A stretch of DNA of 64,000 nt from Sulfurospirillum diekertiae. Lineage in GTDB: Bacteria > Campylobacterota > Campylobacteria > Campylobacterales > Sulfurospirillaceae. The first letter of the stretch is position 1. The number at the start of each line of letters is the position of its first letter. Shown piece by piece: positions 54,440-57,813 of the stretch. The DNA lies in assembly GCF_011769985.2 (NCBI RefSeq), contig NZ_CP039734.2, positions 310,001 through 374,000 of the forward strand. The letters run 5' to 3'. The notes below the pieces were generated by a model. That model did no database searches and was not told where the DNA came from. It worked only from the letters and a program-made list of their open reading frames with translations. The translations under genes and the position numbers were made by a program.

Positions 54440-55699
54440 TTACTCTTTGAGCAAAATGCCACTTTCGACAAAATTACTGATTTTATTCACAACTTCTATA
54501 TCGTTTTGTGAAAAGTATTTTTTGTGAAAGAAATATTTGTAAATTATAAATAGCATATTTTTGTTTTGTTCAATATATGCAAAATGATAATTTAAAGCTT
54601 CCGTTGGGATAGTTTTACTTTCACTGGAAGAGTATCTTTGTTCAACTCGCTTTTTTAGTTCATGTAAAAAAACTTCTATTATTGGTGGATTTTTAGTATC
54701 AATGACTTCCAAAGAGTATGAAACTTTTTCAGGAATATTTATATAGAAATCAGGGGATATTTCTTTTTTTGAATCAGAAGAATTTAGTCTTCTTGGAATG
54801 TTTACAGATAATCGGATAATGAGATTATATTTTGAAAAAATTACTGTTATTAGTGTCAAAAGATAAATAGCTCTTTCATTAGTATCTTTTATTTTTTCGA
54901 CATATTCTAAACAATTATTGAGCACTTGAATATAAATACGCGCATTTTTTTCTTCACTGAGTTTAATAGCGTCTAAAATAGTTGTTTTATAAGATTGAAG
55001 AGGCGCGTATTTCTCATCTTGATAGATGACCTCGAAAAGCTCTTCAATCGTTGGATTATAGAGTATAAATTTATTTACACTTTTTTCTTTAACGGTATTG
55101 AAAACATTTGTATCATGGTCTTGAAAAAACTCTTGATTTAAAATGATGATGGTTTTGGTTTGGAAGTTTTCGGTGAGGTTTGTGATAAAACCAAAAAGAT
55201 CGTTAAGGTCGATTTTGGAAGATTTTCGCTCAAAATCGTCAAAACAAATAACGCCTCCATTCAAAAGTGCATCGGTACCTTTTTTAAGTTTTTCATTGTT
55301 GTTTAATTCTTCGATTTGTTTGCTTGTATTGCTTGCATCAATTCCTACGCCAAATACAGTTATTTTAGGCATAAGACTTGTCATTTTTGTAAAAACAGAA
55401 TAGGTTTGGCTAATGATATCCGTCTCTCTAGATTGGACGAAACTATATGATTTTTGCAAAATTTCATTTTGAAGTTCTTCGATAGAATCCTTGCCATAAA
55501 GACTCACGAAAATATAACTTTTCTTTTTGTCTTTTATTTTTGGAATTAAATCTGTTTCAATGATATTTTTCCAAAAGTGGGTTTTTCCTGAACCCCATAC
55601 ACCTGAGAGCATCAAAATAGTGCCATTATTATCATCGTTATCTAAATACGATTTATTACCTTCAATAAGGTATTTTTTGATGCTCTCAGAATTTGCCAT
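54440..55699 (-). CDS. KAP-like P-loop NTPase
   Basis: A 419-residue ATPase with Walker A GVWGSGKT near residue 33 and Walker B ICFDDFER near 150, a pattern of KAP-family P-loop NTPases, many of which belong to phage defence. No membrane helix is evident. It is AT-rich compared with trxC next to it and stands alone, so it may be a small acquired gene. The four bases between its stop-side neighbour and trxC are not shared; it is upstream of nothing obviously related. Confidence 0.75.
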   Translation of the reverse strand: MANSESIKKYLIEGNKSYLDNDDNNGTILMLSGVWGSGKTHFWKNIIETDLIPKIKDKKKSYIFVSLYGKDSIEELQNEILQKSYSFVQSRETDIISQTYSVFTKMTSLMPKITVFGVGIDASNTSKQIEELNNNEKLKKGTDALLNGGVICFDDFERKSSKIDLNDLFGFITNLTENFQTKTIIILNQEFFQDHDTNVFNTVKEKSVNKFILYNPTIEELFEVIYQDEKYAPLQSYKTTILDAIKLSEEKNARIYIQVLNNCLEYVEKIKDTNERAIYLLTLITVIFSKYNLIIRLSVNIPRRLNSSDSKKEISPDFYINIPEKVSYSLEVIDTKNPPIIEVFLHELKKRVEQRYSSSESKTIPTEALNYHFAYIEQNKNMLFIIYKYFFHKKYFSQNDIEVVNKISNFVESGILLKE

Positions 55700-55702
55700 A
55701 AA

Positions 55703-56125
55703 TTACAAAAACCTCTCCACAAAACGATCCAAATCTTCATCGCTCAAAGCCCCTGAAACACGCTCTACTTCTTTCCCATTTTTGAAAACGATCAGCGTAG
55801 GAATAGAACGAATCTTAAAGCGTGAGGCTAAAAACTGCTCGGCTTCGGTGTCGACTTTGGCGAACAAAACACGCAAAGGGTACGCTCGCGCTGCTTGTTG
55901 GAAGGTGGGGGCGAAGCCTTTGCACGGACCACACCACGGCGCCCAAAAGTCTACAATGACGGGAACATCGGTACTCTCAATGACTGCTTCAAGGGTGTCG
56001 CTAGTGAGTGCGATGGGGTGTGGGTCGAGTAAGGAAGCTTTACATTTACCACAGTTGACTTTTTTGTAAACTTCCTGTTTAGGGACATTATTGGTTGCAA
56101 GGCAAGAGGGACAAATAACTTTCAT
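55703..56125 (-). CDS. trxC: Thioredoxin 2 (TrxC-like)
   Basis: A 140-residue thioredoxin with an N-terminal zinc module (CPSC and CGKC in the first 30 residues) and the redox motif WCGPC near residue 67, followed by the cis-Pro in SIPTLIVF. Reduces disulfides in the cytoplasm and is often oxidative-stress related. Three bases separate it from the DUF4392 gene upstream, so they are likely co-transcribed. Confidence 0.95.
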   Translation of the reverse strand: MKVICPSCLATNNVPKQEVYKKVNCGKCKASLLDPHPIALTSDTLEAVIESTDVPVIVDFWAPWCGPCKGFAPTFQQAARAYPLRVLFAKVDTEAEQFLASRFKIRSIPTLIVFKNGKEVERVSGALSDEDLDRFVERFL

Positions 56126-56128
56126 GGG

Positions 56129-56965
56129 TTATCCTTTCGTTGCGTAGTCTTTAAGTGCTTGGAGAATCTCGGGCTCTATGGCCCACTCTTTACCATCAAC
56201 GGACATGACGGACTCTCGTTTGATGCCATCCACTGAGCCTTTGGAAACGATAAAAGCAAGGTACTGCTCTAGCTCTTCAAAACTCGGTAGAACATTTACA
56301 TGTAAAACTCTTTCAAGTTCGGCGATGAAGCCATACCCACCCCAATTTGAGACCGAAGCGATCATTGGGTAGTCGCAGGGGATGACACAGTAATCGTAAA
56401 AAAGTTCTTTATTTTTCAGCACAGCAGCGAAGCTTCCCATGCCGACTTCATTACCACCATCGCCGATACCAAAACTAGGAGCGGTTTGACTGCCCAGTTT
56501 GAAAAGCTCGTCCACAGGTGCGGTAAACTCTTTGATATCAACGCCACGTGAGTTGAGGTAAAGTCCTTCGTGATTTTGACCGCAACGCTCGATGGAAAGA
56601 TGCGCTACGGGTTTGTACGTGTCTAAAAGTATCTTGTACCCTTGATTTTCTAATCCCTCAATCGGAATGTAGAGGGTTTTAATATCAAAAAAATAATCCT
56701 CGCAAAAACTATCGGTGATGATAACAGGAGTATAGCCAAGTTTTTCAAAAGCTTTTGCAAGAAAGTAAGCGCCCAAAGGGCCATCAGTCTCAGCGTAACC
56801 AGCGACGTAAAAACCTGTATAGATAAAAACAACACCTTTGTCGAGTTTTAAAAAAGCTTGAACGGCATTTTTAGTGTGTTCATTAGGAAAGTGGGCTTGA
56901 ATTTTGTCCATATTGCGGGTGGAGTGTTGAAGAACGATCTCTTCAATTGTATGAAAATTGCGCAT
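56129..56965 (-). CDS. DUF4392 protein, C-terminal half of a D-glutamate cyclase
   Basis: About 278 residues from ATG 56965. The motif GDGGNEVGMG at 168-177 and ETDGPLGA at 59-66 match DUF4392, the C-terminal part of vertebrate D-glutamate cyclase. The divergent neighbour carries the N-terminal DUF1445 part. The start is preferred over 57031 because AAAGG lies five bases before it; this site is the end of a TTTACATGTAAA copy (56973-56984). A second copy at 56295 lies inside the gene. Likely turns D-glutamate into 5-oxo-D-proline together with its neighbour. Confidence 0.82.
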   Translation of the reverse strand: MRNFHTIEEIVLQHSTRNMDKIQAHFPNEHTKNAVQAFLKLDKGVVFIYTGFYVAGYAETDGPLGAYFLAKAFEKLGYTPVIITDSFCEDYFFDIKTLYIPIEGLENQGYKILLDTYKPVAHLSIERCGQNHEGLYLNSRGVDIKEFTAPVDELFKLGSQTAPSFGIGDGGNEVGMGSFAAVLKNKELFYDYCVIPCDYPMIASVSNWGGYGFIAELERVLHVNVLPSFEELEQYLAFIVSKGSVDGIKRESVMSVDGKEWAIEPEILQALKDYATKG

Positions 56966-57045
56966 GAAAGCCTTTACATGTAAAAAATTTACTGAAAAAA
57001 TTGTATCTAAAATTTGATACAATTTAACCAAAAAAAGGGATTAAA

Positions 57046-57813
57046 ATGTATCCAAAAGAATTACGATCTAAAATAGCCAAAGGCGAATTTACTAGACCAA
57101 CAGCAGGTGAATGTCCTGGGTATATTCAAATGAATATGGTAGCCCTTCCAAGAGAGTACGCCAAACGTTTTGAAGCGTTTGCAAAAGAAAATTCCAAAGC
57201 AATTCCTGTATTGGAAATTATTCAGGAAGGACATTTCTCCAAGGTTTTGGCTCCGGGAGCTGACATTTTAAACGAAATTCCAAAGTATAATATTTTAAAA
57301 GACGGTGTTGTCGTTGAAACCGTGACGGACATAACACCGTATTACAATCTTGATTTGGTCTTTTTCTTGATTGGGTGTAGTTTTTCGTTTGAAACGGCAC
57401 TGATTGAAAATGGTATGCCACTGCGCCATGTCGATCAGCAAAAAAATGTTGCAATGTACCGCACGAACATTGCCCTCAAACCTGTTGAAGGTTTTGCGGG
57501 TGAGATGGTCGTCAGCATGCGCCCGATTAAAAAAGAGAAAGTGGCAGATGCGTGTGTTGTCACGAGTCATTTTCCACGTATGCACGGCTCACCGATACAA
57601 GTGGGTTACCCTGAAATGATCGGTATTCGTGATGTTTCAAAGCCTGATTATGGTGATGCGATTGAGATCAAAGCGGACGAAATTCCACTCTTTTGGCCAT
57701 GTGGCGTAACACCTCAAAATGTCATAACCGCCATGAAACTTCCCTTTGCAATCACGCATGCGCCGGGGCATATGTTTGTAACCGATAAAAAAGACAGCGA
57801 ATACTACGAATAA
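57046..57813 (+). CDS. DUF1445 (YcsI-like) putative hydro-lyase, N-terminal half of D-glutamate cyclase
   Basis: A 255-residue protein with the DUF1445 signature GCSFSFE at 110-116 and other family blocks (TRPTAGECPGYIQMN, FPRMHGSPIQVG). In animals this domain is fused ahead of DUF4392 in D-glutamate cyclase. Here the two domains are separate, divergent genes 80 bases apart. Length matches the family. A role in removing D-glutamate from peptidoglycan turnover is inferred. Confidence 0.87.
   Translation: MYPKELRSKIAKGEFTRPTAGECPGYIQMNMVALPREYAKRFEAFAKENSKAIPVLEIIQEGHFSKVLAPGADILNEIPKYNILKDGVVVETVTDITPYYNLDLVFFLIGCSFSFETALIENGMPLRHVDQQKNVAMYRTNIALKPVEGFAGEMVVSMRPIKKEKVADACVVTSHFPRMHGSPIQVGYPEMIGIRDVSKPDYGDAIEIKADEIPLFWPCGVTPQNVITAMKLPFAITHAPGHMFVTDKKDSEYYE

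What the first reader, a model, noticed from the sequence alone, without database searches (positions are those of the whole stretch)
56129..57813. D-glutamate cyclase split into two divergent genes
DUF1445 and DUF4392, fused in vertebrate D-glutamate cyclase, are here adjacent, divergent, single-domain genes. The fusion in animals predicts that the two proteins act together on D-glutamate. Sharing an 80-base promoter gap supports joint control. A bacterial two-subunit form is, to my knowledge, little studied.
Basis: partly seen in the sequence, partly recalled or inferred. Interest (0 to 1): 0.56.

Follow-up and report, generated by a model that had tools for sequence, protein, structure and literature searches.

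The report
Split D-glutamate cyclase gene pair
Two genes whose products are joined into one D-glutamate-handling protein in vertebrates sit side by side as separate genes in this bacterium; related bacteria keep them together and often place them beside the enzyme that recycles 5-oxoproline to glutamate, which points to a bacterial route from D-glutamate through 5-oxoproline whose chemistry is still untested.

Summary
Window 56129-56965 (-) is a DUF4392 protein (GLUCM-like_C) and 57046-57813 (+) a DUF1445 protein (D-Glu_cyclase), both far over Pfam cut-offs, with exactly 80 bases between start codons.

The link is real and wide. In 397 Campylobacterota genomes all 20 with DUF4392 also have DUF1445 (34 of 397 overall), as neighbours. 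The rule repeats in a Chloroflexota class (15 of 15) and, more weakly, in Lachnospiraceae (5 of 7).

The new element is the pathway. All 34 Campylobacterota genomes with DUF1445 also encode PxpA (84 of 397 overall). In sister genomes the order is TRAP transporter, DUF1445, DUF4392, PxpABC, and the TRAP receptor is closest to pyroglutamate receptors. DUF4392 is also found fused to PxpA and to PxpC.

'Two subunits of one enzyme' is not shown. Each protein keeps its own conserved polar residues, and each occurs without the other. I favour two enzymes of one D-glutamate/5-oxoproline route.

The 80-base gap holds two TACAAT hexamers on opposite strands, kept in 15 of 15 congeneric genomes. The split form is already tabulated in print; the pathway reading was not found in nine literature searches.

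The parts
56129..56965 (-). DUF4392 / GLUCM-like_C protein, 278 aa; ATG at 56965; metal ligands E59, D61, E126, D169, E173, D257
   Evidence: Pfam PF14336 E 2.6e-69; closest solved structure TON_0340; the six acidic residues conserved at 1.00 in 94 sequences; AF2 model pLDDT 95.5 matches 4fc5 at Z 35.8, rmsd 1.8, 255 aligned
57046..57813 (+). DUF1445 / D-Glu_cyclase ('putative hydro-lyase', UPF0317) protein, 255 aa; invariant C111, C219, H180, H238, E116, R159
   Evidence: Pfam PF07286 E 1.1e-65; NF003969 over cut-off; 3db9/2pif; invariants in 83 sequences; AF2 model pLDDT 95.0 matches 2pif at Z 35.7, rmsd 1.5, 242 aligned
56966..57045 (.). 80-base divergent intergenic region
   Evidence: read directly; divergent, directly adjacent arrangement in 17 of 20 Campylobacterota genomes that have the pair
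57000..57005 (-). ATTGTA on + = TACAAT on -, candidate -10 hexamer for DUF4392
   Evidence: conserved in 15 of 15 same-genus genomes; inference, no transcription data
57018..57023 (+). TACAAT preceded by TG (57015-57016), candidate extended -10 for DUF1445
   Evidence: hexamer conserved in 15 of 15 same-genus genomes; inference, no transcription data
55703..56125 (-). thioredoxin TrxC (with Zn-ribbon), 3 bases downstream of DUF4392, probably same transcript
   Evidence: NF008229 TrxC over cut-off; directly downstream of DUF4392 in 15 of 15 same-genus genomes and in none of the 5 others with the pair

Best explanation
The two genes encode two separate, complete enzymes of one small pathway that joins D-glutamate and 5-oxoproline (pyroglutamate) metabolism, the bacterial counterpart of the fused vertebrate D-glutamate cyclase. 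Shown here: the families, the strong co-occurrence, the conserved neighbourhood, the association with 5-oxoprolinase PxpABC, and intact conserved residues in both proteins. Inferred: DUF4392, with a two-manganese site on a DHH-phosphoesterase-like scaffold, closes D-glutamate to 5-oxo-D-proline (or opens it) by polarising the gamma-carboxylate/lactam carbonyl; DUF1445, whose occurrence follows 5-oxoprolinase, acts on the 5-oxoproline side; PxpABC then spends ATP to make glutamate. In this genus the pair has separated from pxpABC (1.75 Mb away in this genome) but has stayed together behind a pair of back-to-back promoters, with DUF4392 leading a short run with trxC.
For: Co-occurrence: Campylobacterota 20/20 DUF4392 genomes have DUF1445 (34 of 397; Fisher 6e-25) and 34/34 DUF1445 genomes have PxpA (84 of 397; 2e-26); Lachnospiraceae 5/7 and 9/9 (of 120; 1.3e-5, 2.8e-8); Chloroflexota class 15/15 (18 of 197; 7e-20). 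Operons DctPQM-DUF1445-DUF4392-PxpABC-USP in L062, L063, L082 (Pfam on L062 and profile search on L082; L063 by ORF order and positions); the L062 DctP's nearest solved relatives are 2pfz, 6wgm, 2pfy, which I recall as pyroglutamate receptors. DUF1445 - PxpA - DUF4392 on a Pseudoalteromonas plasmid. Natural fusions PxpA-DUF4392 (L118) and PxpC-DUF4392 (L156). In 14 Campylobacterota genomes with DUF1445 but no DUF4392, PxpA is within 4.1 kb in 13 (positions). Pairwise distances of the two proteins correlate (rho 0.79 over 67 pairs, 0 of 2000 permutations as high; no species-tree control). Metal ligands and Cys/His/Arg residues conserved. The mouse fusion makes 5-oxo-D-proline from D-glutamate (PMC5339696, passages); TON_0340 is Mn-dependent (PMC5132392, passages).
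Against: No bacterial member has a demonstrated D-glutamate cyclase activity that I could find. TON_0340, a lone DUF4392, was reported as a weak Mn-dependent phosphatase (PMC5132392). The direction is awkward: a cyclase followed by an ATP-using 5-oxoprolinase of the same hand would be a futile cycle, so the hand of each step matters and is unknown. In 17 of 20 Campylobacterota pair genomes, including this one, PxpA is not next to the pair. DUF4392 occurs without DUF1445 in 17 of 36 whole genomes tested (27 of the 36 had been chosen for lacking a nearby DUF1445; most are MAGs and may be incomplete). Fisher tests ignore shared descent.
Confidence: 0.6

Rival explanations
1. Two-subunit enzyme: DUF1445 and DUF4392 bind each other and only the complex is a D-glutamate cyclase, as in the vertebrate fusion.
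For: Fusion in vertebrates (PMC5132392, PMC5339696); adjacency kept through inversions and operon changes; the commonest order, DUF1445 then DUF4392 on one strand (47 of 53 linked loci), equals the N-to-C order of the fusion; correlated divergence.
Against: Each protein keeps a full set of invariant polar residues of its own; DUF1445 occurs without DUF4392 in 14 of 34 Campylobacterota genomes and in the B. subtilis control; DUF4392 occurs without DUF1445 in 17 of 36 genomes tested; Pxp genes lie between the two genes in 10 of 53 linked loci. No complex was modelled (the tool folds one chain).
Confidence: 0.2
2. DUF1445 alone is the D-glutamate cyclase (as its Pfam name says) and DUF4392 is an accessory Mn-dependent phosphatase, for example of a phosphorylated by-product.
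For: TON_0340 hydrolyses phosphate compounds with Mn2+ (PMC5132392); the model resembles DHH phosphoesterases RecJ/NrnA at Z about 11; DUF1445 alone goes with 5-oxoprolinase.
Against: The phosphatase activity was described by its authors as very low, best with AMP. Lone DUF4392 genes are sometimes beside amino-acid racemases or MurD/MurL genes. The Pfam name presumably comes from the fused vertebrate protein and does not tell the domains apart.
Confidence: 0.12
3. Neighbourhood by descent only: the pair hitch-hikes and the proteins serve unrelated steps.
For: In this genus the pair is one conserved block (15 of 15) with trxC, so descent contributes.
Against: Independent arrangements (divergent; codirectional; Pxp genes between; fusions of DUF4392 to PxpA and PxpC) in Campylobacterota, Bacillota, Chloroflexota, Actinomycetota and Gammaproteobacteria and the vertebrate fusion.
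Confidence: 0.05

Closest known systems
Vertebrate D-glutamate cyclase (DGLUCY/GLUCM, C14orf159, mouse 9030617O03Rik)
   Same: Same two domains, DUF1445 and DUF4392; order DUF1445 then DUF4392 matches the usual bacterial gene order
   Different: Here two separate genes, divergent, in a bacterium; no activity shown; bacterial relatives sit in 5-oxoprolinase operons
Split GLUCM homologs of gut bacteria (Rendina et al., PMC11580864 / PMC12547972, Table 1)
   Same: Both domains encoded by nearby genes in bacteria (6 split, 0 full-length)
   Different: That survey required the same strand, gave one table row and, in the passages I saw, no pathway; here divergent, with Campylobacterota, Chloroflexota and PxpABC context
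TON_0340 (Thermococcus), DUF4392 alone, 4fc5/5gl2-5gl4
   Same: Same fold (Z 35.8, rmsd 1.8, 255 aligned) and same six acidic metal ligands
   Different: Archaeal, no DUF1445 partner reported; reported as a weak Mn-dependent phosphatase
Atu3911 / PSPTO_5379 (UPF0317) and B. subtilis YcsI in the pxpA-ycsG-ycsI operon
   Same: Same DUF1445 family; YcsI lies in the 5-oxoprolinase operon (PMC10448178, passages)
   Different: No DUF4392 was found in the B. subtilis control genome; the operon carries an NRAMP Mn importer instead

Membership tests
D-glutamate cyclase (GLUCM/DGLUCY) | DUF1445 (D-Glu_cyclase) domain over curated cut-off | tested here: met
   PF07286 220 bits against 25, 143 of 143 positions
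D-glutamate cyclase (GLUCM/DGLUCY) | DUF4392 (GLUCM-like_C) domain over curated cut-off | tested here: met
   PF14336 234 bits against 27.9, 291 of 291 positions
D-glutamate cyclase (GLUCM/DGLUCY) | Both domains in one polypeptide | tested here: not met
   Two genes on opposite strands, 80 bases apart. So it is not filed as a GLUCM protein, only as its split counterpart
D-glutamate cyclase (GLUCM/DGLUCY) | Conversion of D-glutamate to 5-oxo-D-proline | not testable with these tools
   Needs enzyme assay
TON_0340-like DUF4392 proteins | Six acidic metal ligands (Glu59, Asp61, Glu115, Asp157, Glu161, Asp246 in TON_0340) | tested here: met
   E59, D61, E126, D169, E173, D257 aligned and conserved at 1.00 in 94 sequences
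TON_0340-like DUF4392 proteins | Same fold | tested here: met
   AF2 model, Z 35.8 to 4fc5, rmsd 1.8, 255 aligned
UPF0317 / PRK05463 putative hydro-lyase | Equivalog model over cut-off | tested here: met
   NF003969 366 bits against 324
5-oxoprolinase operon member | pxpABC next to the gene | tested here: not met
   In this genome pxpABC is at G000:C1:2112310-2114644 (L061), about 1.75 Mb from the pair; met in 3 of 20 Campylobacterota pair genomes
DHH phosphoesterase superfamily (RecJ, NrnA) | Same fold with two-Mn site | tested here: inconclusive
   DUF4392 model against RecJ 1ir6: Z 11.5, rmsd 3.5, 162 aligned, 9% identity; ligand-by-ligand match not tested

The most novel reading that the evidence does not exclude
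The pair is not a split cyclase but two consecutive enzymes that, with 5-oxoprolinase, form an unrecognised bacterial route from D-glutamate to L-glutamate: DUF4392 (Mn) closes D-glutamate to 5-oxo-D-proline, DUF1445 inverts it to 5-oxo-L-proline by a two-cysteine mechanism (invariant C111 and C219), and PxpABC opens it to L-glutamate. It would explain why DUF1445 follows 5-oxoprolinase with or without DUF4392, why lone DUF4392 is sometimes beside amino-acid racemases or MurD/MurL genes, and why DUF4392 can be fused to PxpA or PxpC. Against it: as I recall, the mouse fusion works stereospecifically on the D forms, and I could not measure the distance between the two cysteines.
Probability: 0.2. 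Interest if true: 0.75.

Novelty: new variant of a known kind. Interest (0 to 1): 0.5.

Why it matters
D-glutamate is a cell-wall amino acid, and the only enzyme I know of that has been tied from a gene to its conversion into 5-oxoproline is the vertebrate fusion, whose two domains have no separate assigned roles. The bacterial pair separates the domains in nature and ties them to a pathway (5-oxoprolinase, and in some relatives a likely pyroglutamate importer), so single-protein assays and gene removals could tell which domain does what, in bacteria and in the human protein. It would also give roles to two families that carry placeholder names ('putative hydro-lyase', 'glutamate cyclase domain-containing protein').

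Tried and rejected
Chance adjacency: rejected by co-occurrence in three sampled groups. Regulator palindrome in the gap: the inverted repeat AAATTGTATC-N8-GATACAATTT is perfect in this genome, but across 15 same-genus genomes only the two hexamers ATTGTA/TACAAT are constant while the inner arm bases and the spacing drift, so I prefer two -10 boxes to an operator; a consensus scan that demands a -35 box gives 1 site against 1.0 expected, no support either way. Looking for the relatives' TRAP receptor in this genome: the L077 receptor has only a 29% match elsewhere. The TRAP receptor beside the pair in G330 (L077) is not of the pyroglutamate type (best 4xeq), so I claim a transporter link only for L062, L063 and L082, of which only the L062 receptor was compared with the PDB. 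Structural relatives of DUF1445 outside its family: one, the NrpR-like domain 3nek (Z 10.0, rmsd 4.0, 167 aligned, 12% identity), a nitrogen regulator that I recall as a 2-oxoglutarate sensor; suggestive of a five-carbon acid pocket, no more. Racemase folds were not in the list, which excludes nothing. Rfam search of the window gave one tRNA only. Conserved neighbours of DUF4392 loci lacking DUF1445 were mostly unrelated genes (Thy1, acyltransferase, aminotransferase V, MmgE/PrpD). DUF1445 tree: orphans (13 of 83 rows) need 5 changes on the tree, so paired and orphan DUF1445 are not two clean clades. Literature: nine searches; no title or shown abstract joined DUF4392 or D-glutamate cyclase with 5-oxoprolinase; one paper (PMC12547972) holds both words and is the table-row paper.

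Full report
What is there. The minus-strand gene at 56129-56965 and the plus-strand gene at 57046-57813 are full-length members of PF14336 (GLUCM-like_C, old DUF4392) and PF07286 (D-Glu_cyclase, old DUF1445). The start codons are 80 bases apart. The window lies in a 2.78 Mb Campylobacterota genome that holds one copy of each family; its nearest named relative in the scan is a Sulfurospirillum MAG (L081, 81% identity for DUF4392), so the genus is probably Sulfurospirillum (inference).

Is the link real? I sampled whole genomes. Campylobacterota (397 genomes): DUF4392 in 20, DUF1445 in 34, PxpA (PF03746) in 84. All 20 DUF4392 genomes have DUF1445; all 34 DUF1445 genomes have PxpA (Fisher 6e-25 and 2e-26). 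The two genes are neighbours in all 20: directly divergent in 17 (15 of the window's genus, 2 of a second genus), codirectional DUF1445 then DUF4392 then pxpA in 2 (G164, G347), and in G173 DUF4392 is divergent from pxpA with the start of DUF1445 after it at the contig end. Lachnospiraceae (120): 7 with DUF4392, of which 5 have DUF1445 (9 of 120), 3 of the 5 within a few kilobases; 9 of 9 DUF1445 genomes have PxpA (21 of 120). A Chloroflexota class (197): 15 with DUF4392, all 15 with DUF1445 (18 of 197), 13 of the 15 within 4 kb on one contig. The P values take no account of shared descent.

A wider look. A scan of genome contigs kept the best 80 of 508 relatives of DUF4392, so it leans to close relatives. 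With profiles built from Campylobacterota proteins, 53 of 80 loci hold DUF1445 within the fetched flanks (up to 8 kb): 36 codirectional, adjacent, DUF1445 first; 9 codirectional with Pxp genes between; 2 codirectional and spaced; 1 with DUF4392 first; 5 divergent, one of these with Pxp genes between. Twelve of the 53 also hold Pxp genes. Of the 27 without, 10 genomes have DUF1445 elsewhere and 17 do not (36 genomes searched, 27 of them these; mostly MAGs).

The pathway. In G164 (L062) the order is DctP, DctQ, DctM, DUF1445, DUF4392, PxpA, PxpB, PxpC and a universal-stress protein (Pfam and NCBIfam); L082 shows the same by profile search, and L063 by ORF order and by the family positions (ORFs). 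The L062 DctP is closest in the PDB to 2pfz, 6wgm and 2pfy (E 5e-46 to 3e-35); I recall these as pyroglutamate receptors, and a paper states that B. pertussis DctP6/DctP7 bind 5-oxoproline (PMC13274462, passages). DUF4392 is fused to the end of PxpA in a Clostridia MAG (L118, 523-residue stop-to-stop frame) and to the end of PxpC in a Porticoccaceae MAG (L156, 621-residue frame). A Pseudoalteromonas plasmid has 'putative hydro-lyase', PxpA and 'glutamate cyclase domain-containing protein' in a row. In Campylobacterota genomes that have DUF1445 but not DUF4392 (14), PxpA is within 4.1 kb in 13 (positions), and an NRAMP transporter is in the run in the two checked by Pfam (L066, L067), as in the B. 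subtilis pxpA-ycsG-ycsI operon (PMC10448178, passages). In the window's own genome pxpABC is 1.75 Mb from the pair.

What each protein looks like. DUF4392: the six acidic residues that bind metal in TON_0340 are E59, D61, E126, D169, E173 and D257 here and are conserved at 1.00 in 94 sequences. The AF2 model (pLDDT 95.5) gives TON_0340 at Z 35.8, then RecJ/NrnA-type DHH phosphoesterases at Z about 11 with rmsd 3.5-4. DUF1445: T19, Q28, N30, C111, E116, R159, H180, C219, T237 and H238 are at 1.00 in 83 sequences; the model (pLDDT 95.0) gives 2pif at Z 35.7 and, outside the family, only the NrpR-like 3nek at Z 10.0. So each protein looks like a complete enzyme, which is why I do not accept 'two halves of one enzyme' as shown.

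Contexts of the lone forms. Lone DUF1445 goes with 5-oxoprolinase. Lone DUF4392 is sometimes in D-amino-acid settings: beside MurD-type ligases in 4 of the 27 loci without DUF1445, 3 of these with a MurL-like epimerase (below that model's equivalog cut-off); beside an annotated alanine racemase in Paraburkholderia and Bradyrhizobium and an aspartate/glutamate racemase in Pseudohalocynthiibacter. Of the 8 plasmid neighbourhoods read (chosen from 68 records with a match), 1 has DUF1445 and PxpA, 3 have a racemase, and 4 have neither (Agrobacterium, Rhizobium, Sagittula, S. meliloti). This is suggestive, not uniform.

The divergent promoter. In 15 of 15 same-genus genomes (two of them, G000 and G205, one species) the gap contains ATTGTA and TACAAT separated by 12 or 13 bases; bases of the arms outside the hexamers vary, and the spacing changes by one. 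In the two genomes of the second genus it is absent. I read this as two -10 hexamers facing apart with no -35 box, as I recall for Campylobacterota; each gene has a purine-rich AAAGG before its ATG (seen). DUF4392 is followed after 3 bases by trxC here, and trxC lies directly downstream in 15 of 15 same-genus genomes and in none of the 5 others.

Mechanism. Best reading: D-Glu to 5-oxo-D-proline by the DUF4392 two-Mn site, a second step by DUF1445, and ATP-driven opening by PxpABC. Steps shown: families, conservation, linkage. Steps inferred: every reaction. The hand of the 5-oxoproline at each step is the weak point. I recall that the mouse enzyme is stereospecific for the D forms and stimulated by Mn2+ in the forward direction (Katane 2018, nothing seen here).

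Known or new. The fusion of a TON_0340-like and an Atu3911-like domain was noted in 2016, with the guess that they do sequentially linked steps (PMC5132392, section 14 read). Mouse activity: PMC5339696 (passages). The split form appears as one table row, 6 split and 0 full-length gut homologs (PMC11580864, passages). In nine searches I found no paper that joins the pair to 5-oxoprolinase. Mirror-tree correlation: rho 0.79 (67 pairs), 0.64 (35 mostly Chloroflexota), 0.89 (22 Campylobacterota), none of 2000 permutations as high, without a species-tree control.

Noticed in passing
L104:3237-6852, L108:5199-8801, L109:7992-11648, L107:7998-10404: DUF4392 beside a MurD-type ligase (TIGR01087 over cut-off) in four unrelated genomes, three of them (not L107) also with a MurL-like UDP-MurNAc-L-Ala-L-Glu epimerase (NF041275 E 7e-81 to 1e-63, below its equivalog cut-off). 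Possible link of DUF4392 to the MurD2/MurL route, which makes D-Glu on the wall precursor.
   Followed up: partly
L118:2040-3608 and L156:6945-8807: Natural fusions PxpA-DUF4392 (Clostridia) and PxpC-DUF4392 (Porticoccaceae).
   Followed up: partly
G588:C73:13365-15038: Two DUF4392 matches in one open frame of 656 aa in a Chloroflexota genome: a tandem duplication within one protein.
   Followed up: no
window 55703-56125: trxC follows DUF4392 by 3 bases and is conserved there in 15 of 15 same-genus genomes; a thioredoxin in the same transcript might matter for a partner protein with two invariant cysteines.
   Followed up: partly
window 54440-55699: KAP-family P-loop NTPase (PF07693, just over cut-off) downstream of trxC; found within the fetched flank in 2 of the 14 other same-genus genomes, G108 and the same-species G205, so it looks like a variable insertion.
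   Followed up: partly
L069:10481-11949: In G121 (DUF1445 without DUF4392) a carbon-nitrogen hydrolase and an RraA-like protein lie directly before DUF1445 after a TRAP set, as possible stand-ins for DUF4392.
   Followed up: no
G158:C39:19246-19671: DUF1445 interrupted by a TGA near PxpA, probably a decaying copy; intact copies exist in other genomes.
   Followed up: no
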